Positions 9,724 to 63,502 of a stretch of 64,000 nt of DNA are shown one piece after another; within the stretch, counting starts at the first letter, position 1; each line of letters opens with the position of its first letter. The translations under genes and the position numbers were made by a program. A model generated the notes under the pieces. That model was not told where the DNA came from and ran no database searches. It saw only the letters and a list, made by a program, of their open reading frames with translations. Origin of the DNA: Mytilisepta virgata (Eukaryota > Mollusca > Bivalvia > Mytilida > Mytilidae); NCBI GenBank assembly GCA_028015205.1, contig CM051514.1:24196150-24260149 (forward strand). Reading direction: 5' to 3'.

Positions 9724-10818
9724 TCGAACCTTGTTGTCTAGAACTGGTTTGTGACAAAAACTCAGATATTTCGAGGTATTTCTCCAGTCCAGGCAAAATA
9801 TCTATTTGTTCAACGCATTTGTACCTTTGTTGAGTCGAATTCGGCTAATTCGAAATCTCGGTTAAAAAAATGTAAATTAACCTTGATTTGTTGAAATTCT
9901 AATTAAGAAAATTTCATAAAAATTTTTCAACTTTGACAAAAGTGAATCATTCGATCATCAAATCGTATTTTTTCATTGCATTGCCAAATAAATTACCTAA
10001 ATTAATGATAATGTTAAGGATTATGTTTGAATAACTACTTTTGATAATAGATCTAGGGGAACCCTATACATTTATTTCCCTTGCATTAGTGAAATATGAA
10101 GATTTGTTCACCCGAGGAAAGTCATGTTTCCTGAGGGCTTGCCCAAGTGAAACATGACTTTCGAGGGTGAACAAATCTTCATATTTCACTAATGCAACGG
10201 AAATTAATGATTTATTCCACTATCCCTGGTGTATTTCGAATAACTGGGATGTGATGGTGAAACACGAATCTGAGAGGGAAACATGATGTTTTGTTTAGTG
10301 GGAGAGTCTCAACGAATGAAATATGTACATAGGTATGAATTAATATACACAGTGGAATAATATAGTTTGTTAGACAATTTTACCTGAGATAATGACGAAA
10401 CTAAATTAATGTCCAGGCCAAGCACGATTGACGAACATTCCTTAGGAATAAAAATACCTCAATTACTGAATAAAATAATTAAAAAGATCTCATGTTTGGA
10501 TGACCAACTGCCAATACAGATCACTCGATTTCTTAATACTCAAAATTCATTCACGTTCCATTTTGCAATACTTAAATATGCATTGATACCTGATAAACGT
10601 TTGTGTATTGACATGTGACCACTTAATGAAATTGGTCACTTACAAAACGCTGATATTGGAAATGATATTGTTTTCAAAATAAACTATAATATGTTAACAG
10701 TACATGTATCAACACAGGGCTACAGAAACTAATCTGCCTTTCAATATGTATAAAACAGAAAGTCATACTTGATATCGGATGACTCGAAGCTCGGCTAAGT
10801 TAAATAGATGAAGTTCGA
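9724..10818. mobile_element. MITE-sized element with GAGTCGAACCTT-type ends
   Basis: The left end reads TA-GAGTCGAACCTTG and the right end, reversed, TA-CAGTCGAACTTC, each next to a TA dinucleotide. A TA target and CAG(T/N)...AACCT ends suggest a pogo/Tigger-like or other Tc1/mariner-superfamily non-autonomous element. No transposase is seen; the 69-codon frame at 10409-10618 is unrecognised. The right terminus coincides with the start of the duplicated block A. Confidence 0.5.
10074..10204. repeat. Long fold-back, about 56-bp arms
   Basis: Left arm 10074-10130 and right arm 10149-10204 pair almost throughout (shared block GAAATATGAAGATTTGTTCA), with an 18-nt loop holding GAGGGCTTGCCC. It sits inside the MITE-sized element. 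Similar single fold-backs occur at 38930 and 50559. Confidence 0.85.
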
Positions 10819-11418
10819 CTGTAATTTGAGTTGTTTCAAGCATAAAAAACAAATGATAAAAAATAAAATCCTACCTCCCATCTGTCCAACTTTTTTAGGG
10901 TAGGACGGATGAAATTGTAGAAATCTATTTTCACTGGCCTTCCCTTGACCTTTTATCTCATTGTGAAAAAAATGCACTTCATAAAAGCTAATTTTATGAG
11001 ACAAAAGAATTTCCATTACCTATTTTTATGAAGAAACAGTAGTTCAAGGAAATTTACATCATTATGAATTATTAATATAATAATAATATAATAATATACA
11101 TCTATTCAATATGTTTGATAAAACAATTACCTAATTAAAATTGCAATTTTTGTAGTTTTCTTTGGCAAAATGATTAAATCCTATCAGAAATTAGAAATAT
11201 TATAATCTCAAGTAAAACCTTTTGATGTCAAATTTATAGCTCTGTGATTTAGACAAATGTCTCCATTTTATATAAGTTTGAAAAGAAATTAAAAATTTCT
11301 AAACAGAATTATGGCATTGCATTGAATACTATAATGCCATTAATAGTAATACATTTTTTTCACTAATAAAATTGCGTTTTCAATTCTACCAAATAATGGA
11401 TGTAGAATTTTACTAAAA
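10797..11418. repeat. Duplicated block A, left copy (A1)
   Basis: Aligns with 23721-24400 at high identity over more than 600 bp (shared phrases TTGAGTTGTTTCAAGCATAA, GGCATTGCATTGAATACTAT, ACCAAATAATGGATGTAGAA). The right copy has small insertions relative to it. In this copy block A stops at TTTACTAAAAC and is followed by transposable elements; in the right copy it runs directly into block B. No coding sequence was recognised in A. Confidence 0.85.
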
Positions 11419-12036
11419 CAAGAGTGGACACACAAAAATGTCTCGCCTGTCGTGTATTTCTAATGAAAGTAAATGCTATCAGACATATTGCATACAGTAT
11501 ACGAAAAACAGGCCAAAACACAAAAACTTAACTATAACCACTGAACCATGAAAATGAGGTCAAGGTCAGATGACACCTGCCAGTTGGACATGTACACCTT
11601 ACAATCCTTCCATACACCAAATATACTAGATCTATTGCTTATAGTATCTGAGATATGGACTTGACCACCAAAACTTAACCTTGTTCACTGATCCTTGAAA
11701 TGGGGTCGAGGTCAATTGAAAACTGTCTGACGGGGATGAGGACCTTGTAAGGTATGCACATACCAAATATAGTTATCCTATTACTCATAATAAGAGAGAA
11801 AACTTTTTTTCAAGTAGTCAATGAACCATGAAAATGAGGTCAAGGACAATGTACATATGACAGACGGAAACTTCGTAACATAAGGCATCTATATACAAAG
11901 TATAAAGCATCCATGTCTTCCACCTTCTAAAATATAAAGCTTTTAAGAAATTAGTTAACGCCGCTGCCGCTGCCGCCGGCGGATCACTATCCCTATGTTG
12001 AGCTTTCTGCAACTTAAGTCGCAGGCTCGACAAAAA
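11419..12036 (+). mobile_element. S element (GTGGACAC family)
   Basis: Starts AAGAGTGGACACAC followed by ATGTCTCGCCTGTCG and ends with a hairpin-like GAGCTTTCTGCAAC...GTCGCAGGCTCGACA at about 11998-12032. The 5' motif TGTCTCGCCTG and the complement of the 3' arm agree at 9 of 11 positions. Internal diverged cores share CCATGAAAATGAGGTCAAGG (about 11547 and 11826). A GCCGCTGCCGCTGCCGCCGG run lies near 11960. No ORF of its own. Family placement by architecture is inference. Confidence 0.65.
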
Positions 12037-12063
12037 CCCAACTAGAGGTACTGTTGTCACAGG

Positions 12064-12099
12064 AGTCCAGCATGCTGGACTGTTTTAGTACGCTAAAAC
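12064..12099. repeat. Double palindrome at Q 5' end
   Basis: AGTCCAGCATGCTGGACT (12064-12081) is a perfect 18-bp palindrome. It is followed without a gap by GTTTTAG-TACG-CTAAAAC (12082-12099), a perfect 7-bp stem. The subterminal motif GATGTCTCC begins two bases later. Confidence 0.9.
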
Positions 12100-12239
12100 T
12101 GATGTCTCCCCTTCCATACCCATAGTTTTTTTAACATTTTTTAGGGATCATCAAGGTGGCAAATTAAGAGCTATGGTACATAATACATGTAGTTACCTAC
12201 AGATATGTGCTTCAACAAGGAATGAAGAAGGTAATATAT

Positions 12240-13600
12240 AGTTTTGGGGAAGGGATCTGAACCATTTTTAAGATAAAATAAGGTTTCTGATTTTGAGGGG
12301 GTGGGGATGATCCCCAGGGCTAAGATGTATAGTACATTCAACTTGTCTTGTAACCATGAGTAGTACAATATATGGTTTAGGGGTGGGGATTCCAACCATT
12401 TTTAAGATAAAATAAGGTTTCTGATTTTGAGGGGGGTGGGGATGACCCCCAGGGCTAAGATGTATATTGCATTCAACTCGTCTTGTAACCATGAGTAGTA
12501 CAATATATGGTTTAGGGGTGGGGATTCCAACCATTTTTAAGATAAAATAAGGTTTCTGATTTTGAGGGGGTGGGGATGACCCCCAGGGCTAAGATGCATA
12601 TTGCATTCAACTAGTCTTGTAACCATGAGTAGTACAATATATGGTTTAGGGGTGGAGATTTCAACCATTTTTAAGATAAATTAAGGTTTCTGGTCTTGAG
12701 GGGTAGGGGATGACCCCCGGAGCTCAGATGTATACTGCATTCAACTTGTCTTGTTATCATGAATAATAAAATATATGGTTTCAGACCCCCTATGGTACCA
12801 AATGATTCGTCTTATCATAAGGAGTAATAATATATATGGTTATAGGGTGGGGATCTCAATGGTTTTCAGAATAATAAGTATTTTGTCATTTAAGGGGGTG
12901 GGGTATGACCCCCCCCCCCCCCCCCCCCTTCAGACCCCCTATAGTACCAAATGATTCGTCTTATCATAAGGAGTAATAATATATATGGTTATAGGGTGGG
13001 GATCTCAATGGTTTTCAGAATAATAAGTATTTTGTCATTTGAGGGGGTGGGGCATGACCCCCCCCCTCAGACCCCCTATGGTACCAAATGATTCGTCTTA
13101 TCATAAAGAGTAATAATATATATGGTTATTGGTTGGGGATCTCAATGGTTTTCAGAATATTTAGTATTTTATCATTTGAAGGGGTGGGGCATGACCCCCC
13201 TCAGACCCCCCTATGGTACCAAATGATTCGTCTTATCATAAGGAGTAATAATATATATGGTTATAGGGTGGGGATCTCAATGGTTTTCAGAATATTTAGT
13301 ATTTTATCATTTGAGGGGGTGGGGCATGACCCCCCTCAGACCCCCCTATGGTACCAAATGATTCGTCTTATCATAAGGAGTAATAATATATATGGTTATA
13401 GGGTGGGGATCTCAATGGTTTTCAGAATATTTAGTATTTTATCGTTTGAGGGGGTGGGGCATGACCCCCCTCAGACCCCCCTATGGTACCAAATGATTTG
13501 TCTTATCATAAGGAGTAATAATATATATGGTTATAGGGTGGGGATCACAATGGTTTTCAAAATATTAAGTATTTTGTTATTTTAGCCTACATTTTACAGG
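12240..13600. repeat. Tandem array, 134-135 bp unit, strand-biased G/C
   Basis: Four units with CCATTTTTAAGATAAAATAA (about 12261, 12395, 12530, 12664) pass into six related units with GGTTTTCAGAATA (12861, 13010, 13147, 13282, 13417, 13552). Each carries GGGGGTGGGG and a CCCCC run. One spacer has a C tract of about 20 (12910-12929), which lengthens that unit to about 149 bp. The last four spacings are 135 bp, so the frame stays open across units (13088-13585); this is an artefact, not a gene. Confidence 0.9.
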
Positions 13601-13751
13601 CTAGGGGGTGGGGACTGACCCCCAGGGACCCAAATGTGGTACTCTGCACTCCGCCATGACCTGATGCATATACCTTCCAAATATCATGAGGCTAGCTCAA
13701 GAAACAAAAAAGTTATGTTCCGGACAAAAAATTTGATTAGAAGAGGAAGAA

Positions 13752-13948
13752 TAACTAGAATTGCAATTGCGAGCAATAGCAGATGTCGCCCCTGGCAGCC
13801 ATCTTGAAAATGGCGGCCATTTCGAAAAAAAAGTATTGATTGCACACCTTCACATAGTGATCTAACTTTCTGCCAAGTTTCATTCAATTCTATCACGGCA
13901 TCTCCGAGAACTAAGCCGGACAAAAATCATTGGAAAGAAAGAATAATA
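13752..13948 (+). mobile_element. M1, short M element without its own 3' hairpin
   Basis: Starts AACTAGAATTGCAATTGCGA, then GCAGATGTCGCCCC, one core (GGCAGCCATCTTGAAAATGG) and the block CATCTCCGAGAACTAAGCCG, then GAAAGAAAGAATAATA. M2 begins right there. The expected continuation, AACAAAGAAACGGAAG plus hairpin, is missing and is inferred to be one of the five tails at 23.1-23.4 kb. Confidence 0.8.
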
Positions 13949-14142
13949 ACTAGAATTGCAATTGCGAGCAATAGCAGATGTCGCCCCTGGCAGCCATCTT
14001 GAAAATGGCGGCCATTTCGAAAAAAAAGTATTGATTGCACACCTTCACATAGTGATCTAACTTTCTGCCAAGTTTCATTCAATTCTATCACGGCATCTCC
14101 GAGAACTAAGCCGGACAAAAATCATTGGAAAGAAAGAATAAT
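13949..14142 (+). mobile_element. M2, short M element without its own 3' hairpin
   Basis: Nearly identical to M1 over about 195 bp, including the CACGGCATCTCCGAG variant. It ends in GAAAGAAAGAATAATA, where M3 starts. By bracket matching it encloses everything from M3 to M7-M9 and closes with one of the tails before the Q hairpin. Confidence 0.8.
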
Positions 14143-14651
14143 AACTAGAATTGCAATTGCGAGCAATAGCAGATGTCGCCCCTGGCAGCCATCTTGAAAA
14201 TGGCGGCCATTTCGAAAAAAAAGTATTGATTGCACACCTTCACATAGTGATCTTACTTTCTGCCAAGTTTCATTCAATTCTATCCATGTTAAGTTTTTCG
14301 CCATTTTAACATCATTTTTCAAAATGGCCGCCAAACGTCTCCAACCGATCGCCATTTTTTTTCATCAGTTTGTTCTTCTAATTGTACTTTACAAACATAC
14401 GAAGTTTAATGAAATTCTATGGTACAGTTTTTGAGATATAAACGTTTTAAATTTTCGGAGGGTACCGATCTTTGAATGGCGGCCATCTTGAAAATGGCGG
14501 CCATTTCGAAAAAAAAAGTATTGATTGCACATCTTCACATAGTGATCTTACTTTCTGCCAAGTTTCATTCAATTCTATCCAGGCATCTCCGAGAACTAAG
14601 CCGGACAAAAATCATTGGAAAGAAAGAAAGAAAGAAAGAAAGAATAATAAT
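14143..14651 (+). mobile_element. M3, long M element, interrupted
   Basis: M-type 5' end, then two cores separated by AAACGTTTTAAATTTTCGG and CGTCTCCAACCGATCGCC, then CAGGCATCTCCGAG, (GAAA)n and AATAATAAT, where M4 begins. Differs from M1/M2 by extra cores. Inferred to be closed by the hairpin at 17018-17049. Confidence 0.75.
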
Positions 14652-15414
14652 AACTAGAATTGCAATTGCGAGCAATAGCAGATGTCGCCCCTGGCAGCCA
14701 TCTAGAAAATGGCGGCCATTTCGAAAAAAAAAGTATTGATTGCACACCTTCACATAGTGATCTTACTTTCTGCCAAGTTTCATTCAATTCTATCCATGTT
14801 AAGTTTTTCGCCATTTTAACATCATTTTTCAAAATGGCCGCCAAACGTCTCCAACCGATCGCCATTTTTTTTCATCAGTTTGTTCTTCTAATTGTACTTT
14901 ACAAACATACGAAGTTTAATGAAATTCTATGGTACAGTTTTTGAGATATAAACGTGTTAAATTACCGATCTATGAATGGCGGCCATCTTGAAAATGGCGG
15001 CCATTTTGAAAAAAAAAGTACTGATTGCACACCTTCACATAGTGATCTTACTTTCTGCCAAGTTTCATTCAATTCTATCCATGTTAAGTTTTTCGCCATT
15101 TTAACATCATTTTTCAAAATGGCCGCCAAACGTCTCCAACCGATCGCCATTTTTTTTCATGAGTTTGTTCTTCTAATTGTACTTTACAAACATACGAAGT
15201 TTAATGAAATTCTATGGTACAGTTTTTGAGATATAAACGTTTTAAATTTTCGGAGGGTACCGATCTTTGAATGGCGGCCATCTTGAAAATGGCGGCCATT
15301 TCGAAAAAAAAAGTATTGATTGCACACCTTCACATAGTGATCTTACTTTCTGCCAAGTTTCATTCAATTCTATCCAGGCATCTCCGAGAACTAAGCCGGA
15401 CAAAAATCATTGGA

Positions 15415-15458
<44 letters not shown>

Positions 15459-15529
15459 ATAATAATAATAACAAAGAAACGGAAGAATAACAATATGTCG
15501 TCCCGTGACTACGTTCGGGGCGACATAAT
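14652..15529 (+). mobile_element. M4, complete M element
   Basis: The clearest intact member: 5' end AACTAGAATTGCAATTGCGA; cores (first with the variant CCATCTAGAAAATGG); a (GAAA)n run of about ten units near 15413-15458; AATAATAATAATAACAAAG; and the 3' hairpin at 15495-15526 with outer arms ATGTCG/CGACAT and inner CCCG/CGGGG. It shows what an uninterrupted M looks like and where the others are split: inside the (AAT)n between (GAAA)n and AACAAAGAAACGG. Confidence 0.85.
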
Positions 15530-16007
15530 AACTAGAATTGCAATTGCGAGCAATAGCAGATGTCGCCCCTGGCAGCCATCTTGAAAATGGCGGCCATTTT
15601 GAAAAAAAAAGTACTGATTGCACACCTTCACATAGTGATCTTACTTTCTGCCAAGTTTCATTCAATTCTATCGATGTTAAGTTTTTCGCCATTTTAACAT
15701 CATTTTTCAAAATGGCCGCCAAACGTCTCCAACCGATCGCCATTTTTTTTCATGAGTTTGTTCTTCTAATTGTACTTTACAAACATACGAAGTTTAATGA
15801 AATTCTATGGTACAGTTTTTGAGATATAAACGTTTTAAATTTTCGGAGGGTACCGATCTTTGAATGGCGGCCATCTTGAAAATGGCGGCCATTTCGAAAA
15901 AAAAAGTATTGATTGCACATCTTCACATAGTGATCTTACTTTCTGCCAAGTTTCATTCAATTCTATCCAGGCATCTCCGAGAACTAAGCCGGACAAAAAT
16001 CATTGGA

Positions 16008-16047
<40 letters not shown>

Positions 16048-16058
16048 ATAATAATAAT
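15530..16058 (+). mobile_element. M5, long M element, interrupted
   Basis: Begins directly after the M4 hairpin and its ATAAT spacer. Has M cores, CAGGCATCTCCGAG, (GAAA)n and AATAATAATAAT, then M6. Inferred closing hairpin: 16955-16986. Confidence 0.75.
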
Positions 16059-16821
16059 AACTAGAATTGCAATTGCGAGCAATAGCAGATGTCGCCCCTG
16101 GCAGCCATCTAGAAAATGGCGGCCATTTCGAAAAAAAAAGTATTGATTGCACACCTTCACATAGTGATCTTACTTTCTGCCAAGTTTCATTCAATTCTAT
16201 CCATGTTAAGTTTTTCGCCATTTTAACATCATTTTTCAAAATGGCCGCCAAACGTCTCCAACCGATCGCCATTTTTTTTCATCAGTTTGTTCTTCTAATT
16301 GTACTTTACAAACATACGAAGTTTAATGAAATTCTATGGTACAGTTTTTGAGATATAAACGTGTTAAATTACCGATCTATGAATGGCGGCCATCTTGAAA
16401 ATGGCGGCCATTTTGAAAAAAAAAGTACTGATTGCACACCTTCACATAGTGATCTTACTTTCTGCCAAGTTTCATTCAATTCTATCCATGTTAAGTTTTT
16501 CGCCATTTTAACATCATTTTTCAAAATGGCCGCCAAACGTCTCCAACCGATCGCCATTTTTTTTCATGAGTTTGTTCTTCTAATTGTACTTTACAAACAT
16601 ACGAAGTTTAATGAAATTCTATGGTACAGTTTTTGAGATATAAACGTTTTAAATTTTCGGAGGGTACCGATCTTTGAATGGCGGCCATCTTGAAAATGGC
16701 GGCCATTTCGAAAAAAAAAGTATTGATTGCACACCTTCACATAGTGATCTTACTTTCTGCCAAGTTTCATTCAATTCTATCCAGGCATCTCCGAGAACTA
16801 AGCCGGACAAAAATCATTGGA

Positions 16822-16861
<40 letters not shown>

Positions 16862-16930
16862 ATAATAATAATAACAAAGAAACGGAAGAATAACAATATG
16901 TCGTCCCGTGACTACGTTCGGGGCGACATA
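16059..16930 (+). mobile_element. M6, complete M element with hairpin
   Basis: Shares with M4 the CCATCTAGAAAATGG variant, the internal TTAAATTACCGATCTATG joint and core order, so M4 and M6 are close copies. Its (GAAA)n run (16817-16862) leads through (AAT)n to the hairpin at 16898-16929. Two further M tails follow. Confidence 0.8.
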
Positions 16931-17051
16931 ACAAAGAAACGGAAGAATAACAATATGTCGTCCCGTGACTACGTTCGGGGCGACATAATAATAACAAAGA
17001 AACGGAAGAATAACAATATGTCGTCCCGTGACTACGTTCGGGGCGACATAA
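16931..17051 (+). mobile_element. Two stacked M 3' tails
   Basis: Each tail is AACAAAGAAACGGAAGAATA plus the M hairpin (16955-16986 and 17018-17049) with no 5' part of its own. They are read as the 3' remainders of M5 and M3, left to the right of what inserted into them. Spacing is 57 and 63 bp, differing only in the number of AAT units. Confidence 0.8.
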
Positions 17052-17895
17052 TTAAAATTTACTTTTGGCGAAACGTGAGATGTCCCCTCCCGTGCCCATT
17101 TTATGCCTGTTCTCTCCAACAAGTTGAAGAGTCGCCATCACCGATATACACTGTATACCAAGTTTCGTTAAAATCAGACTTTATATTTTTTGCCATTTTC
17201 AGCAGCCATCTTAAAAATGGAGGCCATTACGGAAATTCCGAAAATGCGCCGTGAGTCGCCATCACCCATATACCCTGTATACCAAGTTTCGTTGAAATCA
17301 GACAATGTTTACATTTTTCACCATTTGGCGGCCATCTTGAAAATGGCGGCCATTACAAAAATTCCGACAATGCGCCGTCAGTCGCCATCACCCTTATACC
17401 CTGTATACCAAGTTTCATTGAAATCGGACAATGTTTACATTTTTCACCATTTTCGGGGGCCATCTTGAAAATGGCGGCCATTACAAAAATTCCGACAATG
17501 CGCCGTCAGTCCCCATCACCTATATACCCTGTATACCAAGATTCGTTGAAATCGGACAATGTTTACATTTTTCGCGATTTTCGGCGGCCATCTTGAAAAT
17601 GGCGGCCATTACAGAAATTCCGACAATGCGCCATCAGTCGCCATCACCGTTATACCCTGTATACCAAGTTTCGTTGAAATTGGACAATGTTTACATTTTT
17701 CGCCATTTTTGGCGGCCATCTTGGAAATGGCGGCCATTTTGAAATTATAAACCGCAAAAATCACTGTAGGACTTTGGGACCTATCACCCCTCCAAGTTTC
17801 ATATTGATCGGTCCATCCATTTCCGAGGAGATAGCCGGACAAGTTCGTGCATCAGGTTGACGGAAGAAAAAGAAAAAAGTATAATAATAAGAAAA
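17052..17895 (+). mobile_element. N1, first N unit
   Basis: N 5' end: ATTAAAATTTAC, a damaged palindrome (ACTTTTGGCGAAACGT), then GAGATGTCCCCTCCCGTG. About five cores of 128 bp follow, each with TACCCTGTATACCAAG and CGGCCATCTTGAAAATGG. A unique end CCATCCATTTCCGAGGAGAT, AGCCGGACAAGTTCGTGC leads to GAAAAAGAAAAAAGTATAAT. N2 follows directly. N1 differs from N2-N5 at several positions, so it is the oldest or an outlier unit. Confidence 0.75.
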
Positions 17896-18737
17896 ATTAA
17901 AATTTACGTTTCGCGAAACGTGAGATGTCCCCTCCCGTGCCCATTTTATGCCTGTTCTCTTCAACAAGTTGAAGAGTCGCCATCACCGATATACACTGTA
18001 TACCAAGTTTCGTTAAAATCAGACTTTATATTTTTTGCCATTTTCAGCAGCCATCTTAAAAATGGAGGCCATTACGGAAATTCCGAAAATGCGCCGTGAG
18101 TCGCCATCACCCATATACCCTGTATACCAAGTTTCGTTGAAATCAGACAATGTTTACATTTTTCACCATTTGGCGGCCATCTTGAAAATGGCGGCCATTA
18201 CAAAAATTCCGACAATGCGCCGTCAGTCGCCATCACCCTTATACCCTGTATACCAAGTTTCATTGAAATCGGACAATGTTTACATTTTTCACCATTTTCG
18301 GGGGCCATCTTGAAAATGGCGGCCATTACAAAAATTCCGACAATGCGCCGTCAGTCCCCATCACCTATATACCCTGTATACCAAGATTCGTTGAAATCGG
18401 ACAATGTTTACATTTTTCGCGATTTTCGGCGGCCATCTTGAAAATGGCGGCCATTACAGAAATTCCGACAATGCGCCATCAGTCGCCATCACCGTTATAC
18501 CCTGTATACCAAGTTTCGTTGAAATTGGACAATGTTTACATTTTTCGCCATTTTTGGCGGCCATCTTGGAAATGGCGGCCATTTTGAAATTATAAACCGC
18601 AAAAAACACTGTAGGACCTTGGGACCTATCACCCCTCCAAGTTTCATATTGATCGGTCCATCCATTTCCGAGGAGATAGCCGGACAAGTTCGTGCATCAG
18701 GTTGACGGAAGAAAAAGAAAAAAGTATAATAATAAGA
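17896..18737 (+). mobile_element. N2 unit
   Basis: Same order as N1, with an intact perfect palindrome ACGTTTCGCGAAACGT at 17906-17921 touching GAGATGTCCCC. Same core number as N1; no terminal hairpin before N3 starts in the AATAATAAG tract. Confidence 0.75.
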
Positions 18738-19710
18738 ATTAAAATTTACGTTTCGCGAAACGTGAGATGTCCCCTCCCGTGCCCATTTTATGCCTGTTCT
18801 CTTCAACAAGTTGAAGAGTCGCCATCACCGATATACACTGTATACCAAGTTTCGTTAAAATCAGACTTTATATTTTTTGCCATTTTCAGCAGCCATCTTA
18901 AAAATGGAGGCCATTACGGAAATTCCGAAAATGCGCCGTGAGTCGCCATCACCCATATACCCTGTATACCAAGTTTCGTTGAAATCAGACAATGTTTACA
19001 TTTTTCACCATTTGGCGGCCATCTTGAAAATGGCGGCCATTACAAAAATTCCGACAATGCGCCGTCAGTCGCCATCACCCTTATACCCTGTATACCAAGT
19101 TTCATTGAAATCGGACAATGTTTACATTTTTCACCATTTTCGGGGGCCATCTTGAAAATGGCGGCCATTACAAAAATTCCGACAATGCGCCGTCAGTCCC
19201 CATCACCTATATACCCTGTATACCAAGATTCGTTGAAATCGGACAATGTTTACATTTTTCGCCATTTTCGGCCGCCATCTTGAAAATGGCGGCCATTACA
19301 AAACTTCCGACAATGCGCCGTCAGTTGCCATCACCCTTATACCCTGTATACCAAGTTTCATTGAAATTGGACAATGTTTACATTTTTCGCGATTTTCGGC
19401 GGCCATCTTGAAAATGGCGGCCATTACAGAAATTCCGACAATGCGCCATCAGTCGCCATCACCGTTATACCCTGTATACCAAGTTTCGTTGAAATTGGAC
19501 AATGTTTACATTTTTCGCCATTTTTGGCGGCCATCTTGGAAATGGCGGCCATTTTGAAATTATAAACCGCAAAAAACACTGTAGGACCTTGGGACCTATC
19601 ACCCCTCCAAGTTTCATATTGATCGGTCCATCCATTTCCGAGGAGATAGCCGGACAAGTTCGTGCATCAGGTTGACGGAAGAAAAAGAAAAAAGTATAAT
19701 AATAAGAAAA
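18738..19710 (+). mobile_element. N3 unit (one extra core)
   Basis: As N2 but about 130 bp longer through one added core (variant CGGCCGCCATCTTG and AAAACTTCCGACAATGCG). Otherwise almost identical to N2, which points to recent tandem copying. Confidence 0.75.
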
Positions 19711-20674
19711 ATTAAAATTTACGTTTCGCGAAACGTGAGATGTCCCCTCCCGTGCCCATTTTATGCCTGTTCTCTTCAACAAGTTGAAGAGTCGCCATCA
19801 CCGATATACACTGTATACCAAGTTTCGTTAAAATCAGACTTTATATTTTTTGCCATTTTCAGCAGCCATCTTAAAAATGGAGGCCATTACGGAAATTCCG
19901 AAAATGCGCCGTGAGTCGCCATCACCCATATACCCTGTATACCAAGTTTCGTTGAAATCAGACAATGTTTACATTTTTCACCATTTGGCGGCCATCTTGA
20001 AAATGGCGGCCATTACAAAAATTCCGACAATGCGCCGTCAGTCGCCATCACCCTTATACCCTGTATACCAAGTTTCATTGAAATCGGACAATGTTTACAT
20101 TTTTCACCATTTTCGGGGGCCATCTTGAAAATGGCGGCCATTACAAAAATTCCGACAATGCGCCGTCAGTCCCCATCACCTATATACCCTGTATACCAAG
20201 ATTCGTTGAAATCGGACAATGTTTACATTTTTCGCCATTTTCGGCCGCCATCTTGAAAATGGCGGCCATTACAAAACTTCCGACAATGCGCCGTCAGTTG
20301 CCATCACCCTTATACCCTGTATACCAAGTTTCATTGAAATTGGACAATGTTTACATTTTTCGCGATTTTCGGCGGCCATCTTGAAAATGGCGGCCATTAC
20401 AGAAATTCCGACAATGCGCCATCAGTCGCCATCACCGTTATACCCTGTATACCAAGTTTCGTTGAAATTGGACAATGTTTACATTTTTCGCCATTTTTGG
20501 CGGCCATCTTGGAAATGGCGGCCATTTTGAAATTATAAACCGCAAAAAACACTGTAGGACCTTGGGACCTATCACCCCTCCAAGTTTCATATTGATCGGT
20601 CCATCCATTTCCGAGGAGATAGCCGGACAAGTTCGTGCATCAGGTTGACGGAAGAAAAAGAAAAAAGTATAATA
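19711..20674 (+). mobile_element. N4 unit
   Basis: Same extra core as N3 and N5. Ends in AAAAAAGTATAATAATT, where N5 begins. No hairpin of its own in line; the second N tail at 21.7 kb could belong to it. Confidence 0.75.
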
Positions 20675-21654
20675 ATTAAAATTTACGTTTCGCGAAACGT
20701 GAGATGTCCCCTCCCGTGCCCATTTTATGCCTGTTCTCTTCAACAAGTTGAAGAGTCGCCATCACCGATATACACTGTATACCAAGTTTCGTTAAAATCA
20801 GACTTTATATTTTTTGCCATTTTCAGCAGCCATCTTAAAAATGGAGGCCATTACGGAAATTCCGAAAATGCGCCGTGAGTCGCCATCACCCATATACCCT
20901 GTATACCAAGTTTCGTTGAAATCAGACAATGTTTACATTTTTCACCATTTGGCGGCCATCTTGAAAATGGCGGCCATTACAAAAATTCCGACAATGCGCC
21001 GTCAGTCGCCATCACCCTTATACCCTGTATACCAAGTTTCATTGAAATCGGACAATGTTTACATTTTTCACCATTTTCGGGGGCCATCTTGAAAATGGCG
21101 GCCATTACAAAAATTCCGACAATGCGCCGTCAGTCCCCATCACCTATATACCCTGTATACCAAGATTCGTTGAAATCGGACAATGTTTACATTTTTCGCC
21201 ATTTTCGGCCGCCATCTTGAAAATGGCGGCCATTACAAAACTTCCGACAATGCGCCGTCAGTTGCCATCACCCTTATACCCTGTATACCAAGTTTCATTG
21301 AAATTGGACAATGTTTACATTTTTCGCGATTTTCGGCGGCCATCTTGAAAATGGCGGCCATTACAGAAATTCCGACAATGCGCCATCAGTCGCCATCACC
21401 GTTATACCCTGTATACCAAGTTTCGTTGAAATTGGACAATGTTTACATTTTTCGCCATTTTTGGCGGCCATCTTGGAAATGGCGGCCATTTTGAAATTAT
21501 AAACCGCAAAAAACACTGTAGGACCTTGGGACCTATCACCCCTCCAAGTTTCATATTGATCGGTCCATCCATTTCCGAGGAGATAGCCGGACAAGTTCGT
21601 GCATCAGGTTGACGGAAGAAAAAGAAAAAAGTATAATAATAAGAAAAATAAGAA
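20675..21654 (+). mobile_element. N5 unit, leading to N 3' hairpins
   Basis: Last N unit, followed by the N tail AATAAGAAACGGAGTAAAAA and hairpin. It is therefore the only N that reads as a complete element (palindrome, GAGATGTCCCC, cores, purine-rich run, hairpin). Confidence 0.8.
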
Positions 21655-21760
21655 ACGGAGTAAAAACAATATGTCCCCGACGACACTTCGTGGTCGGGGA
21701 CATAATAAGAAACGGAGTAAAAACAATATGTCCCCGACGACACTTCGTGGTCGGGGACAT
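21655..21760 (+). mobile_element. Two N 3' tails with terminal hairpins
   Basis: Hairpins at 21671-21703 and 21728-21760, 57 bp apart and identical: perfect 11-bp arms ATGTCCCCGAC/GTCGGGGACAT with an inner CAC-TTC-GTG. The right arm GGGGACAT is complementary to the N 5' motif ATGTCCCC. Only two tails exist for five N 5' ends. Confidence 0.85.
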
Positions 21761-21956
21761 AACTAGAATTGCAATTGCGAGCAATAGCAGATGTCGCCCC
21801 TGGCAGCCATCTTGAAAATGGCGGCCATTTCGAAAAAAAAGTATTGATTGCACACCTTCACATAGTGATCTAACTTTCTGCCAAGTTTCATTCAATTCTA
21901 TCACGGCATCTCCGAGAACTAAGCCGGACAAAAATCATTGGAAAGAAAGAATAATA
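21761..21956 (+). mobile_element. M7, short M element, interrupted
   Basis: Same short form as M1/M2. Starts immediately after the second N hairpin and ends at GAAAGAAAGAATAATA, where P1 begins. Inferred closing tail is among the five at 23.09-23.37 kb. Confidence 0.8.
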
Positions 21957-22324
21957 ACTAGGTATGATTGTGATCGCCAGCGAGTCACAAGATGTCTCCC
22001 AAACAAACCCCCATTGCCACTATCTAGAGCTTATCAGAAACCCCCTAAATTCAAATTATTGCAATGTCCTATATAATGACCTTTGAAACGGCGGCCATTT
22101 TGAAAATTTTAAAAGTCGTTTGCAAAACTTCAGGTCACCCTTAACATATTCCCAAAGTTTCATATTGATTGGACATTGCATCTTTGAGAAACGTCGCGGA
22201 CAACATTGAACGGAAAGAAAAAGGAAAGAAGAAGAAGAAGAAGAAGAAGAAGAAGAAGAAGAAGAATAATAATAAGAAACCGGACAAAAACAATATGTCT
22301 CCCAAAACTTTGTTTGGGAGACAT
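21957..22324 (+). mobile_element. P1, complete P element
   Basis: 5' end AACTAGGTATGATTG, an imperfect hairpin TGTGATCGC-CA-GCGAGTCACA (21969-21989), then AGATGTCTCCCAAACAAAC. One core (AACGGCGGCCATTTTGAAAA), CATCTTTGAGAAACGTCGCG, a (GAA)n run of about 13 units at 22228-22265, and a 3' hairpin (22295-22324) with arms ATGTCTCCCAAA/TTTGGGAGACAT. The 5' motif GTCTCCCAAAC and 3' arm GTTTGGGAGAC are exact complements. Confidence 0.85.
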
Positions 22325-22519
22325 AACTAGAATTGCAATTGCGAGCAATAGCAGATGTCGCCCCTGGCAGCCATCTTGAAAATGGCGGCCATTTCGAAAA
22401 AAAAGTATTGATTGCACACCTTCACATAGTGATCTAACTTTCTGCCAAGTTTCATTCAATTCTATCACGGCATCTCCGAGAACTAAGCCGGACAAAAATC
22501 ATTGGAAAGAAAGAATAAT
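22325..22519 (+). mobile_element. M8, short M element, interrupted
   Basis: M 5' end directly after the P1 hairpin; one core; ends at GAAAGAAAGAATAATA with M9 following. Confidence 0.8.
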
Positions 22520-22718
22520 AACTAGAATTGCAATTGCGAGCAATAGCAGATGTCGCCCCTGGCAGCCATCTTGAAAATGGTGGCCATTTAAAAAAAAAAG
22601 TATTGATTGCACACCTTCACATAGTGATCTAACTTTCTGCCAAGTTTCATTCAATTCTATCACGGCATCTCCGAGAACTAAGCCGGACAAAAATCATTGG
22701 AAAGAAAGAATAATAATA
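22520..22718 (+). mobile_element. M9, short M element, interrupted
   Basis: Like M8, with the small variants GAAAATGGTGGCC and an altered A-run. Ends at GAAAGAAAGAATAATAATA with P2 following. Confidence 0.8.
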
Positions 22719-23062
22719 ACTAGGTATGATTGTGATCGCCAGCGAGTCACAAGATGTCTCCCAAACAAACCCCCATTGCCACTATCTAGAGCTTATCAGA
22801 AACCCCCTAAATTCAAATTATTGCAATGTCCTATATAATGACCTTTGAAACGGCGGCCATTTTGAAAATTTTAAAAGTCGTTTGCAAAACTTCAGGTCAC
22901 CCTTAACATATTCCCAAAGTTTCATATTGATTGGACATTGCATCTTTGAGAAACGTCGCGGACAACATTGAACGGAAAGAAAAAGGAAAGAAGAAGAAGA
23001 AGAATAATAATAAGAAACCGGACAAAAACAATATGTCTCCCAAAACTTTGTTTGGGAGACAT
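22719..23062 (+). mobile_element. P2, complete P element
   Basis: Nearly identical to P1 but with a much shorter (GAA)n run (about 5 units near 22990). 3' hairpin at 23033-23062 with the same arms as P1. It is the innermost element of the right-hand stack. Confidence 0.85.
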
Positions 23063-23365
23063 AATAATAACAAAGAAACGGAAGAATAACAATATGTCGT
23101 CCCGTGACTACGTTCGGGGCGACATAATAACAAAGAAACGGAAGAATAACAATATGTCGTCCCGTGACTACGTTCGGGGCGACATAATAACAAAGAAACG
23201 GAAGAATAACAATATGTCGTCCCGTGACTACGTTCGGGGCGACATAATAACAAAGAAACGGAAGAATAACAATATGTCGTCCCGTGACTACGTTCGGGGC
23301 GACATAATAACAAAGAAACGGAAGAATAACAATATGTCGTCCCGTGACTACGTTCGGGGCGACAT
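23063..23365 (+). repeat. Five identical 60-bp M 3' tails
   Basis: The unit AACAAAGAAACGGAAGAATA / ACAAT plus the M hairpin plus AAT occurs five times at exactly 60-bp spacing. Hairpins start at 23094, 23154, 23214, 23274 and 23334, with no difference between units. None has a 5' part beside it. They are read as 3' remainders of M9, M8, M7, M2 and M1. The 208- and 164-codon frames crossing them are artefacts of a period divisible by three. Confidence 0.85.
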
Positions 23366-23410
23366 AATAATCACTAAAACAATATGTCTCCCTTCGAGAA
23401 GGGGAGACAT
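23366..23410 (+). mobile_element. Q element, 3' tail and terminal hairpin
   Basis: TCACTAAAACAAT followed by a hairpin at 23384-23410 (ATGTCTCCCTT / AAGGGGAGACAT around CGAG). The right arm GAAGGGGAGACAT is the exact 13-base complement of ATGTCTCCCCTTC at 12102-12114 and of no other 5' end in the window. This makes it the 3' end of Q. Confidence 0.8.
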
Positions 23411-23720
23411 AATAAACCTTACTATGGAAAAAGTCCACAATCAAGACATCATAGACAGTTAGTTATCGTTAATATGTCAACTATACACAAAAGTCTTAGA
23501 CAGTTTAAATCTTTTGCAAAGGTGAAAAATATTTATCTTTCTTCCAAAACAGACATTTTCTGCATGATATTACGAAACTCTTGGTCCCGTTTCACACACA
23601 TTCATACGAGTACGATTTGTCTTATTTGGTGTTCAGTGTCTGTGTTCTATTGTGAACGAGTCTCAATAGTATCGTACAAATTGTTTTTAAACTTGAAACT
23701 GATACATCTTACAACTCTAG
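23411..23720. repeat. Duplicated blocks B and C, left copy (B1-C1)
   Basis: B1 (AATAAACCTTACTATGGAAA ... CAAAACAGACATTTTCTG) matches 24405-24560. C1 (CATACGAGTACGATTTGTCT ... TTACAACTCTAGG) matches 24845-25020. In this copy B and C adjoin; in the right copy about 280 bp lie between them. C1 is followed directly by A2. Confidence 0.85.
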
Positions 23721-24400
23721 GTTAAATAGATGAGGTTCAACTGTATTTTGAGTTGTTTCAAGCATAAAAAACAAATGATAAAAAATAAAATCCTACCTCC
23801 CACCTGCCCCACATTTTTTGGGCAGGATGGATGAAAATCTAGAAATTAATTTTCACTGGCCTTTCCCTGACCTATTATCTCATTGGGAAAAAATGCACTT
23901 TATAAAAGCTAATTTTACAAGATAAAGAATTTACATTATCTATTGTTATGAAGAGACAGTAGTTCAAGGCACCAAACATATGGAAATTTACATCATTATG
24001 AATTATTAATATAATGAAATCATACATCTATTCAATATGTTTGATAAAACAATTACCTAATAAAAATTGCCATTTTTGTGGTTATAGGTTTTCTTTGGCA
24101 AAATGATTAAATTTCCTAAATGAAACTTTATAAAAATCCTATAAGAAATTTGAAATATTATAATCTCAAGTAAAAACTTTTGATGTCAACAAGAAATTTA
24201 TAATTTATAGCTCTGTAATTTAGACAAATGTCTCCATTTTATATAAGTCTGAAGAGAAATAAAAAATTAAAAATTTCTAAACAGAATTATGGCATTGCAT
24301 TGAATACTATACTGGCATTAATAGGAATACATTTTTTTCACTAATAAAATTGTGTTTTCAATTCTACCAAATAATGGATGTAGAATTTTACTAAAAAAAA
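23721..24400. repeat. Duplicated block A, right copy (A2) with empty site
   Basis: Matches A1 (10797-11418). Its end runs ATTTTACTAAAAAAAAAACC and continues straight into block B at 24405. This uninterrupted A-B junction is the pre-insertion state of the left copy, where about 12 kb separates A1 from B1. Confidence 0.85.
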
Positions 24401-24404
24401 AACC

Positions 24405-25020
24405 AATAAACCTTACTATGGAAAAAGTCCAAAATCAAAAAATCATAGACATTTAGTTATCGTTAATATGTCAACTATACCCAAAAGTTTTAAGACAGTT
24501 TAAACTTTTGCAGTAGGTGAAACATATTTATCTTTCTTCCAAAACAGACATTTTCTGTCGGAGACACCCAATGAAAACCCCCCCCCCCTACCTTTTTGTC
24601 CAATAATATCGTGTCATTGAAAGAATACATAAAAGTAGTAACAACATTTTCCTTAAACTTAAAACATGAAAAATATTTTTTCATCAAAATTTAAGTTTCC
24701 AACCGGAACAAACACTATCTTATCAACAGACTGCACAATAATAGATTTATCTGATATATTTCAATCAAAAATCCCTACGGAACATGAGCACCTTTGTGTG
24801 CATGATTAACTGATTGTTTATTTACGAAAGCAGTATGTACTTTCATGCATGATGTTACAAAACTCTTGGTCCTATTAACGAAACTTTTGGTCTCTTTCAC
24901 AAACATTCATACGAGTACAATTTGTCTTATTTGGTGTTCAGTGTCTGTGTTCTATTGTGAACGAGTCTCAATCGTTGTTGTACAAATTTTTGTTAAGCCG
25001 GGAACTGATGGATCTTACAA
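24405..25020. repeat. Duplicated blocks B2 and C2
   Basis: B2 is 24405-24560 and C2 24845-25020. The intervening 24561-24844 includes a C9 run and has no match in the left copy. C2 ends in CTGATGGATCTTACAACTCT, the first unit of the minisatellite that follows. Confidence 0.8.
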
Positions 25021-25798
25021 CTCTAGGAAGACGCACCAGTCTCCCATATCAATATAACTGATGGATCTTACAACTCTAGGAAGACTCAACAGTCTCCCAA
25101 ATCAATATAATTGATGGATCTTACAACTCTAGGAAGACTCACCAGTCTCCCATATCAATATAACTGATGGATCTTACAACTCTAGGAAGACTCACCAGTC
25201 TCCCATATCAATATAAGTGATGGATCTTACAACTCTAGGAAGACTCACCAGTCTCCCATATCAATATAGCTGATGGATCTTACAACTCTAGGAAGACTCA
25301 CCAGTCTCCCATATCAATATAACTGATGGATCTTATAACTCTAGGAAGACTCACCAGTCTCCCATATCAATATAACTGATGGATCTTACAACTCTAGGAA
25401 GACTCACCAGTCTCCCATATCAATATAACTGATGGATCTTACAACTCTAGGAAGACTCACCAGTCTCCCATATCAATATAGCTGATGGATCTTATAACTC
25501 TAGGAAGACTCACCAGTCTCCCATATCAATATAACTGATGGATCTTACAACTCTAGGAAGCCTCACCAGTCTCCCATATCAATATAACTGATGGATCTTA
25601 CAACTCTAGGAAGACTCACCAGTCTCCCATATCAATATAACTGATGGATCTTACAACTCTAGGAAGACTCACCAGTCTCCCATATCAATATAACTGATGG
25701 ATCTTACAACTCTAGGAAGACTCACCAGTCTCCCATATCAATATAACTGATGGATCTTACAACTCTAGGAAGACTCACCAGTCTCTCATATCAATATA
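25003..25798. repeat. Minisatellite, 53-bp unit, about 15 copies
   Basis: Unit ACTGATGGATCTTACAACTC / TAGGAAGACTCACCAGTCTC / CCATATCAATATA, repeated about 15 times with few substitutions (for example AGCTGATGG for AACTGATGG). There are no variable spacers, so it is not a CRISPR-like array. Its first 24 bp are already present once in C1 (23698-23721), so it grew from block C. Confidence 0.95.
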
Positions 25799-61500: not shown

Positions 61501-63502
61501 TGTGTCTCCATTGTTTTTGGTGTTATCTTTTTGTCATGCTGTATATAAATAGAATGTAGTACAAGTGCCAATGAGACAACTCTCAATCAAAGTACAATAC
61601 AATGTATTAAAAGTTAAAAATTATATGTCAACAAACAGCTTCAATCCAGAGCCTAGACTCATACGAAACAGCAAACTAAAAGGGTCCAAAAATTACTAAT
61701 GTTAAACAATTCAAATAGGAAAACCAATGGTATAATTTACATGCAGCATAAAAAATATCTAAATGAGTGCAATTGTTTAATATATATATCAAACAAATTC
61801 TTTTTTTAACACAATGTACATGATGTATGCCTCAGGTTACAAAGTTAATGTTTTGCCTTTTTCCCAACAAATTTTTCCCCATGTTTTTGTGTCCTTTCCA
61901 GAATTTCTACAAACTTCACAAAGAGGTCGTACAACAGAATATTGTTCGTAGAGTTCTGATATATACGGGTTAGAATCATCTAGAAGATCCTCTGCTGTTC
62001 CACAGTGTACACACACAGGGGGAAGATAGTGTTTAAGTGAGGCACTTTAGTATGTAGTTTCAATGGGTGAATTGCATGCTAGTCCCTCCTCTCCTTGTGA
62101 GTCCTTAATTCTTACGACGAAATCGGCATAATTACTTGCGGAAATTATTTGTTTTTTGACTGTGAGAAGAAATCTGTGTTTAAGCTATAAACAATTAAAT
62201 CATTGCGATTTGACATTGACTAAAACGCTCTGGCGATTTTATTGACTTTTTATAAATTTTTCAAAAAAAAACAATGCGGGAAATAGACACGATTTTGTTT
62301 CCGGATGCGGGAAGCGGGAAAATAAAAAAAAAATTTTTTTTTTGTTTAGAAAAAAATACTTGCGGGCGGGTCCGTCGAACAAGTAATCAAATTGGTGTGG
62401 CCTTAGTTAAAGGCAAGAAAAGTGTCCAATCCAACATAATTAAATGTATATAAAATTTTATAGAAAACATTTGTGATTATACTGATATGCCTGACAAAGA
62501 ATCCATACTTATATCTGTACAAAGGTGGTGTCTTATTTCTGTTTTGTTTATTTTATTTATTATTTTTACAGATTATCCAAATTTGAAGAATGTTACAACA
62601 TGACAGATGACATGCTCCTGAATTATGCAGCGAATAGTTATCCTTTCATTCAGAGCCTAAATCTTGCCAACTGCTACTGGTACAAAACTCGAACAATAGA
62701 ATGGGTTACCAGTAAATGTAAAGAACTGACAGAACTTTTTTTACTGGGCATTAATTTAACATCAAAGAAAATATGTAAAATTCTTGGATCGTTGCCAAAA
62801 CTGGAGAAATTTTCGTTTACAACACAGAATATTCATGAATTTGATGAGGAAATAAACAATGTGACAGAAGCTCAAAAGACAATGGGAAACTTGAAGCACA
62901 TCACAATTCATTTTGAAGTACAAGAATCAACAAGAACTGATGTCGCAATTTCTGTGGAAATAATACACAAAATTTCTTCCTTTTTTGAACACTGTAGAAA
63001 TTTGGAATCTTTACATGTGCTAGGTCAGCCAAATATTGGGGGAAGAATCCCACGACTTTTGGTGCAACCAAATGTTGTAAAACTCGATAATTTAAAACAT
63101 TTGCAACATTTGTCTTTGAATTGTGCATTAGACGCTGCTGCCAGAATGTTCTATTATGGTGCTTTATTTTCAATTGCCAAATTGAAAACTCTCCGGTTAA
63201 AAACAATTCTAAATCCGAGTGCAAATTTTGAAAATCAATCACAATTTTGCTCATCTTTCTGGCAGTCCCACAAATATCTCCAGAACATAGACTTCTCAAA
63301 TATTTGCCTTCATAAAATATTCAGCGAAGACTGTGATATTTTAGAAGTTAAGCCACATCTACAATACTTGAATTTAGCAAACACACATGCTCAAGGTGTG
63401 AATCTTTCATTGACTACTATAGCTTCATCCTGCCCAAATATACAGAGCCTGAATTTAATGAGTAGTAAATTGATGAACAAGTGGACAGTTTTAGGAAGAG
63501 AG
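58512..63502 (+). CDS. FBXL18: F-box/LRR protein, FBXL18-like, first two coding exons (3' end outside window)
   Basis: Exon 1 (58512-58645) begins MDNFQILPDDIILLIFSHLS and holds the F-box (about residues 4-44), the Skp1-binding part of an SCF ubiquitin ligase. The donor CAG|GTGTGG leaves AG, completed by A of exon 2 (62572-63502, acceptor TATTTTTACAG) to restore Arg45. Exon 2 has LRR-like LxxLxL segments, e.g. IQSLNLANCYW (71-81), LTELFLLGINLTS, LQYLNLANTH (308-317) and IQSLNLMSSK (335-344). CYW...T.E.V...C..L and G..LTS...K.L agree with the corresponding stretch of FBXL18. Exon 2 ends phase 0 at GGAAGAGAG|GTTTGT; the frame after 63502 is intron. 355 residues are seen; the vertebrate protein is about twice as long, so more exons lie to the right. 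The 3926-bp intron 1 is full of repeats. Confidence 0.75.
58845..59420 (+). mobile_element. Hairpin-started element in FBXL18 intron 1
   Basis: Opens with GTCCCCTC...GAGGGAC around TGTAACGCGATT (58845-58871). Three cores follow with ACAACTCCTCTGAGACCGC / GCAACTCCTCTGAGATCGC and TTAGTCA(C/T)(C/A)A(T/A)ATGTA. No terminal 3' hairpin recognised. Confidence 0.6.
59421..60179. other. Intronic AT-rich stretch
   Basis: Within FBXL18-like intron 1. Contains a (TA)n-type run near 60020-60050 and a 70-codon frame (59759-59971) without recognisable domain. No exon called. Confidence 0.5.
60180..60340. repeat. Cluster of palindromes
   Basis: In sequence: CAATACTGGTA/TACCAGTATTG (60180-60211), CAATACTGGT/ACCAGTATTG (60216-60240), ACTCTCTAGACTAGAGAGT (60267-60285), and a nested stem GTAGGT...ACCTAC (about 60288-60333) around the 21-nt palindrome with arms TTAAACTAGA/TCTAGTTTAA. 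All lie within 160 bp. Confidence 0.85.
61385..61540 (+). repeat. Mussel interspersed repeat fragment (AGCAGGAACTGCTCATCC)
   Basis: AGCAGGAACTGCTCATCCTT, CCACAGTTTTTGGGGTTCAT and a T-rich tail with GTCTGTGTCTCCATTGTTTT. I recognise this as a common 3' segment of repeats in Mytilus; the element class is not certain. Confidence 0.6.
61545..61740 (+). repeat. Mussel interspersed repeat (GTGCCAATGAGACAACTCT)
   Basis: AAGTGCCAATGAGACAACTC, AATCCAGAGCCTAGACTCAT, AAAGGGTCCAAAAATTACTA and ATAGGAAAACCAATGG appear in the order found in very abundant Mytilus repeats. This is one of the main reasons for assigning the window to a mussel. Confidence 0.75.
61837..62075 (-). pseudogene. Zinc-binding C-terminal relic inside the TIR element
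   Basis: The minus-strand frame ends with a normal stop and reads PLCVHCGTAEDLLDDSNPYI, SELYEQYSVVRPLCEVCRNS, GKDTKTWGKI. The two CxxC pairs (CVHC, CEVC) about 30 residues apart suggest a zinc-binding fold. Upstream, the coding-like reading shifts frame within a CCCCC run (HYLPP in one frame, CVHCGT in the next), and a stop follows. Coding composition is strong compared with its surroundings. I do not recognise the family; it may be a captured or host-derived fragment. Confidence 0.5.

What the first reader, a model, noticed from the sequence alone, without database searches (positions are those of the whole stretch)
12040..23410. Element ends balance like brackets: a deep nest of 17 insertions, all in one orientation
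Seen: reading left to right, 5' ends (open) and 3' hairpins (close) give Q( M1( M2( M3( M4( ) M5( M6( ) ) ) N1( N2( N3( N4( N5( ) ) M7( P1( ) M8( M9( P2( ) ) ) ) M2) M1) Q). There are 9 M starts (13752, 13949, 14143, 14652, 15530, 16059, 21761, 22325, 22520) and 9 M hairpins (15495, 16898, 16955, 17018, 23094, 23154, 23214, 23274, 23334); 2 and 2 for P; 1 and 1 for Q. Every interrupted element breaks at the same place, the (AAT)n between its simple repeat and its 3' tail. Inference: each newcomer inserted into the previous element's (AAT)n, always in the same direction, giving Russian-doll nesting and stacked orphan tails. Tandem arrays made by unequal exchange would not be expected to balance family by family.
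Basis: partly seen in the sequence, partly recalled or inferred. Interest (0 to 1): 0.9.

Follow-up and report, generated by a model that had tools for sequence, protein, structure and literature searches.

The report
Russian-doll nests of Helentron-like elements
Small non-coding jumping elements here keep landing inside one another at the same short AAT repeat that each of them carries, always facing the same way, so that they pile up into Russian-doll stacks, and similar stacks are found at many other places in the same genome.

Summary
The module map is real: Q 1:1, M 9:9, P 2:2, one strand. Nested insertion is supported beyond the window. In 27 other loci (chosen by an M-M dimer match) plus the window, 639 modules all share their locus's strand, and 330 of 331 newcomers sit in another element's spacer or just behind an inner tail. 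Taking out the newcomer gives the intact spacer exactly for M5, N1/N3 and 4 of 4 parsed P. One host variant is hit at the same AA in 37 of 44 copies, by 17 different newcomers. M variants are shared between loci almost as often as within one, so growth is mainly in trans. One-step Q(M) stages exist. Exact balance is not general: M balances in 4 of 9 complete nests. 'Seventeen insertions' is an upper estimate; local duplication or loss also occurs. No autonomous partner was sought; the species is unknown.

The parts
12040..13749 (-).
23369..23412 (-). Q 5' terminal hairpin (LF tail), closes the nest
13753..13943 (-). M1 body, short variant, inserted in the Q spacer; paired with the tail at 23309
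13948..14138 (-). M2 body, short variant; paired with the tail at 23249
14143..14628 (-). M3 body (486 nt variant); paired with the tail at 16993
14652..15528 (-). M4, complete (772-nt body) with its own tail at 15470-15528
15530..16016 (-). M5 body directly behind the M4 tail; paired with the tail at 16930; left+right spacer equals the intact M6 spacer
16059..16931 (-). M6, complete (body identical to M4) with its own tail at 16873-16931
16930..17051 (-). two stacked M tails (16930-16988 for M5, 16993-17051 for M3)
17050..21633 (-). five N bodies in a row (17050, 17895, 18737, 19710, 20674); N2-N5 identical except for one 128-bp unit, N1 differs at 5 sites
21650..21762 (-). only two N tails (21650-21705 for N5; 21707-21762, whose spacer fits N1 or N3); three tails missing
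21761..21951 (-). M7 body, short variant; paired with the tail at 23189
21956..22326 (-). P1, complete, inserted in the M7 spacer
22325..22515 (-). M8 body directly behind the P1 tail; paired with the tail at 23129
22520..22710 (-). M9 body, short variant with 3 differences from M1, the same variant is found at 12 other loci; paired with the tail at 23069
22718..23064 (-). P2, complete, inserted in the M9 spacer
23069..23367 (-). five stacked identical M tails (period 60), for M9, M8, M7, M2, M1 in that order
24380..24557 (.). paralogous copy of the Q right flank without Q (filled site CCCAA[Q]AATAAACC, copy without Q ...AACCAATAAACC)

Best explanation
The locus is a nest of non-autonomous Helentron-like elements (HINE architecture) from four families. 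Each element carries, next to its 5' terminal hairpin, a spacer with (AAT)n; on the element's own strand this is (ATT)n, with an A|TT insertion site in each unit. SHOWN: newcomers stand at an AA of that spacer, in the commonest host mostly at one AA that leaves a single AAT unit before the resident's constant 5' terminal stretch, or directly behind an earlier newcomer; all face the resident's way; Q, M, P and N serve as hosts, M, P, N (and once Q, in Q) as newcomers; the same body variants stand at many loci. INFERRED: asymmetric ends meeting an asymmetric target lock the orientation; a Rep/Helicase of an unseen autonomous partner performs rolling-circle transposition in trans; because each arrival brings a fresh (AAT)n, a nest is a self-renewing landing pad and its outer tails pile up as orphan tandem repeats. 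Slippage or unequal exchange among identical tails or bodies, and possibly transposition of composites, then disturbs the balance, as for the three missing N tails here.
For: Window map. Subterminal inverted repeats pair each body with its own tail (10, 8, 16, 13 nt for M, N, P, Q, each longer than with any other family's tail; shuffles reaching this 1, 38, 0, 0 of 1000). Spacer sums with the junction AA counted once: M5 = intact M6, N1 or N3 + second N tail = intact N5, M1, M2, M7, M8 all AATAATAATAAC, the 3-AAT spacer of 19 of 19 intact copies of that variant. 28 loci: 639 modules, 0 opposite; of 331 newcomers 193 in a spacer of another element, 137 directly behind an inner tail, 1 a Q in host DNA. 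Parsed interrupted P: 4 of 4 give (AAG)nAATAATAAT, the spacer of 21 of 28 intact P. Commonest host variant: 37 of 44 hit at the same AA by 17 distinct newcomers in 22 loci; 131 of 165 host/position/newcomer combinations distinct. 23 of 31 multi-copy M variants occur at >=2 loci; identical pairs 0.080 within, 0.064 between loci. One-step stages L038, L044: Q spacer, single M, Q tail. Nine complete nests: 12 tokens off well-formed in total, order shuffles mean 44.5, minimum 26; M starts and tails covary, r 0.86, P 0.0022. Exact M ends genome-wide: 3819 hairpins, 4558 starts.
Against: N is 5:2 here. M is off in 5 of 9 complete nests: +1 in L016, L019, L026, +2 in L023, -4 in L022. Reconstituted M spacers (67) share the mode of intact ones (113), 3 AAT, but are longer: median 5 against 3 (my count). 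Rarer M variants are shared within a locus more than between loci (0.039 against 0.005), and one 762-nt variant has 5 copies in one locus only, so local duplication exists. 103 of 137 'behind a tail' junctions are M after M, which head-to-tail products would also give. The 27 other loci were chosen by an M-M dimer match, which favours nests. The host of the outermost M was not identified in L012, L036, L043 and L045. No transposase was found.
Confidence: 0.9

Rival explanations
1. Tandem duplication and unequal exchange built the array: bodies and tails were multiplied separately by misalignment in the AAT tracts or between like modules.
For: N 5:2, L022 4:8, perfect 60-bp tail period, identical N3-N5, an apparent repeated block in L019 (by module spacing only); simulated homologous exchange balances M in 38-41% of runs; rarer variants cluster within loci.
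Against: Cannot make heterotypic junctions; only 0.4-1.7% of simulated runs match both interruption and near-balance; most multi-copy variants are shared across loci; different newcomers at one AA; N junctions differ in position.
Confidence: 0.05
2. Composites moved as units: transposition from an outer 5' end to an inner 3' end, or of a whole nest, spread pre-formed multi-terminus elements (as proposed for Fusarium and maize).
For: Only two Q|M junction types among 11 Q loci; 13 of 37 newcomers at the hot AA of the commonest variant are that same variant; published models in PMC5148889 (section 16 read) and PMC3288121 (passages).
Against: Different M variants follow the same Q junction (L038 long, window short); 17 distinct newcomers at one AA.
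Confidence: 0.2
3. Head-to-tail rolling-circle concatemers or recombination of circular intermediates with residents.
For: 137 junctions directly behind a tail, 111 of them same-family; tandem arrays and head-to-tail junctions of Helitrons are on record (PMC5876387, passages).
Against: 193 newcomers split a spacer, which a tandem insertion does not do; 26 junctions behind a tail are heterotypic.
Confidence: 0.07
4. Assembly artefact: collapsed or mis-joined repeats.
For: Near-identical modules; unequal tails in some nests.
Against: Same grammar at 27 other loci; the 12 left flanks of Q that could be read all differ.
Confidence: 0.02

Closest known systems
HINE, non-autonomous Helentrons (DINE-1, Cg_HINE, Pearl)
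   Same: Subterminal inverted repeats at both ends, inverted repeat at the 5' end, microsatellite behind it, central tandem repeats, palindrome near the 3' end, T-rich target with TT on both sides (PMC4067079, passages and sections 6 and 11; PMC7492417, passages and section 9).
   Different: Deep one-way nesting at a preferred AA of the own spacer; section 9 of PMC7492417 describes the oyster elements as interspersed and in both orientations. Sequence homology was not tested.
proto-Helentron of Phytophthora (PMC4067079 section 11)
   Same: Ends 5' TT and 3' CTAG, inserted between A and T without target duplication: the ends TTATGTC...CTAG and the AA|T flank of 14 of 15 Q tails can be read this way for M, P and Q.
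   Different: That is a 14-kb coding element in an oomycete; these are short and non-coding; N does not end in CTAG.
Self-inserted Helitrons with multiple termini (Fusarium FoHeli, maize)
   Same: Nested Helitrons and stacked ends from self-insertion (PMC5148889 section 16; PMC3288121 passages).
   Different: A few cases in what I read; here many loci, four interlocking families and a preferred landing site.
Tandem arrays of truncated Helitrons in plant centromeres (Xiong et al. 2016, seen only as cited in PMC12628747 and PMC7348941)
   Same: Stacks of 5' ends.
   Different: Attributed to rolling-circle amplification of truncated copies; here starts and tails covary and newcomers split their hosts.
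DIRS-1 of Dictyostelium
   Same: Strong preference for inserting into its own copies, forming clusters (PMC5006619, passages).
   Different: Tyrosine-recombinase retroelement, thought to use homologous recombination; no one-way bracket grammar in the passages read.

Membership tests
HINE / non-autonomous Helentron | Subterminal inverted repeats at both ends | tested here: met
   10, 8, 16, 13 nt in M, N, P, Q; N weakest (38 of 1000 shuffles as long)
HINE / non-autonomous Helentron | 5' inverted repeat/hairpin and palindrome near the 3' end | tested here: met
   5' hairpins fold in all four; 3' stems for M, P, Q; in N only the palindrome ACGTTTCGCGAAACGT, weak in the fold
HINE / non-autonomous Helentron | Microsatellite near the 5' end and central tandem repeats | tested here: met
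   GAAA, AAG and AAT tracts; about 134/135-, 128- and 285-bp repeats in Q, N and long M; short M and P have no core array here
HINE / non-autonomous Helentron | TT-rich target, no target-site modification | tested here: inconclusive
   AA on both sides of insertions, once in reconstituted and Q-less sites: an element-borne 5' TT without duplication, or a 2-bp TT duplication; the copy without Q also lacks 618 bp beside it
HINE / non-autonomous Helentron | No coding capacity | tested here: met
   No ORF above 208 aa over the nest in a list of ORFs >=110 aa; these were not searched against protein families
HINE / non-autonomous Helentron | Autonomous Rep/Helicase/endonuclease partner with matching ends | not tested
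   No search for one was made
Pearl (bivalves) | Sequence homology to published Pearl elements | not tested
   I saw the Gaffney 2003 paper only in a reference list; no sequence of it was compared
Canonical Helitron1 | 5' TC end | tested here: not met
   Ends read TTATGTC; CTAG at the other end of M, P, Q does fit CTRR

The most novel reading that the evidence does not exclude
Terminus-directed self-targeting: the transposition machinery uses a resident element's 5' end as an address and inserts newcomers at a nearly fixed distance from it, so that an interlocking guild of HINE families lives almost wholly inside one another and each nest is an ordered record of arrivals.
Probability: 0.4. Interest if true: 0.75.

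Novelty: new variant of a known kind. Interest (0 to 1): 0.62.

Why it matters
Nested and tandem Helitrons are known, but here the rule can be read off directly: where newcomers land, which way they face and what the host looked like before. With 3819 exact M hairpins in one genome, insertion order, target choice and the birth of satellites (stacked 60-bp tails, stacked 195-bp bodies) become measurable, and it suggests how a rolling-circle element might multiply with little harm to genes. It also warns that tandem arrays in such genomes may be insertion nests rather than products of unequal exchange.

Tried and rejected
Balance as proof: simulated duplication/deletion showed that the 9:9 count alone is weak. 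Dating by divergence: copies are too similar; N1 (outermost N) differs from N2-N5 as expected, M9 (inner) differs from its hosts against expectation, but its exact body stands at 12 other loci. Exact-pattern scans of viral and prokaryote collections gave nothing; one search found two 17-nt matches, judged chance by eye from the surrounding DNA. Taxon: four unnamed homologues of an LRR ORF, no answer. Genome-wide counts of Q ends were asked for and never answered; P and N counts were not asked for. Rows dropped: modules under 72% of module length (weaker pieces were looked at for 7 nests); incomplete nests; stretches whose brackets do not parse (among them the P of L037, which holds an unpaired M). 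In one search I added one Q(each to L026 and L034: Q spacer sequence stands directly left of their first module, the Q start lies outside the fetched stretch. In one search P counts as one newcomer, whatever its variant. 27 of 37 dimer clusters listed (besides the window) were fetched.
Full report
Observation. The nine M tails are identical over 59 nt. M1, M2, M7, M8 bodies are identical, M4 = M6, P1 = P2, N3 = N4 = N5 and N2 differs from these only by one 128-bp unit; N1 differs from N2-N5 at 5 sites and M9 from M1 at 3.

What the elements are. On the minus strand each family reads TTATGTC + hairpin, a constant stretch, (ATT)n and, in M, P and Q, a purine/pyrimidine microsatellite, then the body, a subterminal repeat matching its own hairpin arm (M 10, N 8, P 16, Q 13 nt; the longest cross-family match is 9 nt, between P and Q), a palindrome and CTAG (N ends differently). 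This is the HINE layout as described in PMC4067079 (passages and sections 6 and 11 read) and PMC7492417 (passages and section 9 read). No protein partner was looked for.

Local arithmetic. If a newcomer splits a spacer, the left and right remnants must add up to an intact spacer. With the AA at the junction counted once, M5 gives exactly the intact M6 spacer, GAAA length included (M4 has one GAAA more); N1 or N3 with the second N tail gives exactly the intact N5 spacer, N2 and N4 do not; M1, M2, M7, M8 all give three AAT, M3 six, M9 five. So the surviving second N tail fits N1 or N3, and the lost ones include that of N4, as a deletion between identical 57-bp tails could leave it. With the N tails taken as lost, the deepest element is N5 at level 8 (my count). 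The outermost target has a counterpart in a neighbouring tandem copy of the host DNA: filled CCCAA[Q]AATAAACC, copy without Q ...AACCAATAAACC; that copy also lacks 618 bp next to Q, so it is not a clean empty site on the left. Five AAT-rich stretches of the window outside the nest carry no such element (one mismatch allowed).

Balance is not enough. Pure duplication/deletion processes balance M in 13-41% of runs and reach the observed degree of both interruption and near-balance in 0.4-1.7%. Other loci were needed.

Other loci. The window lies in a 1.03-Gb assembly of 109 contigs. I fetched 27 of 37 other clusters that match an M-M dimer; this choice favours nests. In these and the window 639 modules were found, none opposite to its locus; 331 openings follow another module: 193 in a spacer of another element (146 M in M, 19 P in M, 13 M in P, 7 M in Q, 5 N in N, 2 N in M, 1 M in N), 137 directly behind an inner tail (111 same-family, 26 heterotypic), 1 a Q in host DNA. 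The regular expressions that sort these are mine and crude. The 12 left flanks of Q all differ (one, in L026, is another Q's spacer), and AA|T follows 14 of 15 Q tails, which reads as an A|T insertion of an element TT...CTAG on its own strand.

Reconstitution elsewhere. Four of four parsed interrupted P with M (and in one case P) inside give (AAG)nAATAATAAT, the spacer of 21 of 28 intact P. Sixty-seven stack-paired interrupted M give AAT counts of 2-15, mode 3, median 5; 113 intact M give 2-13, mode 3, median 3 (medians counted by me; that script's 'not clean' line is a fault of my pattern). The shift to longer spacers is unexplained: longer tracts may be hit more often, or slip after insertion.

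Trans insertion at a preferred site. Of 281 M bodies 122 are distinct; 23 of 31 multi-copy variants occur at two or more loci, the commonest with 63 copies at 26; identical pairs are 0.080 within and 0.064 between loci (permuted mean 0.0646, maximum 0.093). Without the four commonest variants it is 0.039 against 0.005, so local duplication also happens. Eight of the nine window bodies have an exact twin at another locus; M3 has none. The commonest host variant is interrupted in 44 of 63 copies, 37 at the same AA, by 17 distinct newcomers at 22 loci; the other 19 are intact, all with three AAT. Among 42 single-child interrupted M the newcomer leaves one (20) or two (13) AAT units on the tail side. 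This is why I favour a position set from the resident's 5' end, but a mere preference for that AA in a short tract is not excluded.

Balance elsewhere. Nine complete nests: M balanced in the window, L020, L027, L034; +1 in L016, L019, L026; +2 in L023; -4 in L022. Together 12 tokens off well-formed against 44.5 (minimum 26) for shuffled order; most nests are not significant alone. Starts and tails covary (r 0.86; permuting tails among nests P 0.0022).

Less selected sample. Exact M hairpins number 3819 and exact M starts 4558, reversed-pattern control 0 for both; these are exact-match counts of two different sequences, so their ratio is not a balance test. The first 100 listed hairpins (contigs C1-C2) fall in 11 clusters, the first 100 starts in 18, each cluster on one strand. 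All five starts that stand alone in that list were fetched: L038 and L044 show Q spacer, one complete M and the Q tail (the Q start lies outside the stretch), the predicted first step; L046 is a complete M with a diverged tail followed by a P-like tail; L043 and L045 stand behind an AAG/AAT-rich stretch whose owner I did not identify. The outermost M of L012 and L036 likewise follow an unidentified AAG/AAT-rich stretch. So no M was seen in plainly unrelated host DNA, but for these four the host is not proven.

Known or new. Self-insertion and stacked ends are published for Fusarium and maize Helitrons (PMC5148889 section 16; PMC3288121 passages), tandem truncated Helitrons for plants (as cited in PMC12628747 and PMC7348941, passages), complex Helitron loci for oyster (PMC12628747, PMC11136912, passages), and self-preference for DIRS-1 (PMC5006619, passages). 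In the rows shown by nine paper searches and the passages I opened I saw no description of one-way, bracket-like HINE nests with a preferred landing AA; the library lacks most subscription papers, and the original Pearl report was seen only as a reference. I call it a new variant of a known kind.

Noticed in passing
window 10795-11421 + 23411-23723 versus 23717-24557 and 24873-25027: A tandem duplication of host DNA flanks the nest: one copy carries Q plus a 618-bp extra segment (11422-12039), the other has neither.
   Followed up: partly
window 11422-12039: 618-bp segment directly left of Q, absent from the paralogous copy; possibly another mobile element.
   Followed up: no
window 25003-25798: 53-bp tandem array, 15 copies at 97% matches, starting in the duplicated flank.
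   Followed up: no
window 62525-63592: ORF with FBXL18-type leucine-rich repeats (Pfam PF19729) with four unnamed homologues (sources lgn and ena), the best 88% identical.
   Followed up: partly
L039, L043, L045: By eye, M 3' ends joined to Q-like 135-bp central repeats: elements that seem to share ends and swap cores.
   Followed up: no
L019, L026, L027: Tails 95% identical to the common M tail directly follow long bodies (742-nt gap in L019 and L026, 429-nt gap in L027), so body and tail variants may be linked.
   Followed up: partly
G000:C2:7210481-7233405: A run of 35 exact M starts and 31 exact M hairpins over about 23 kb, all on one strand.
   Followed up: partly
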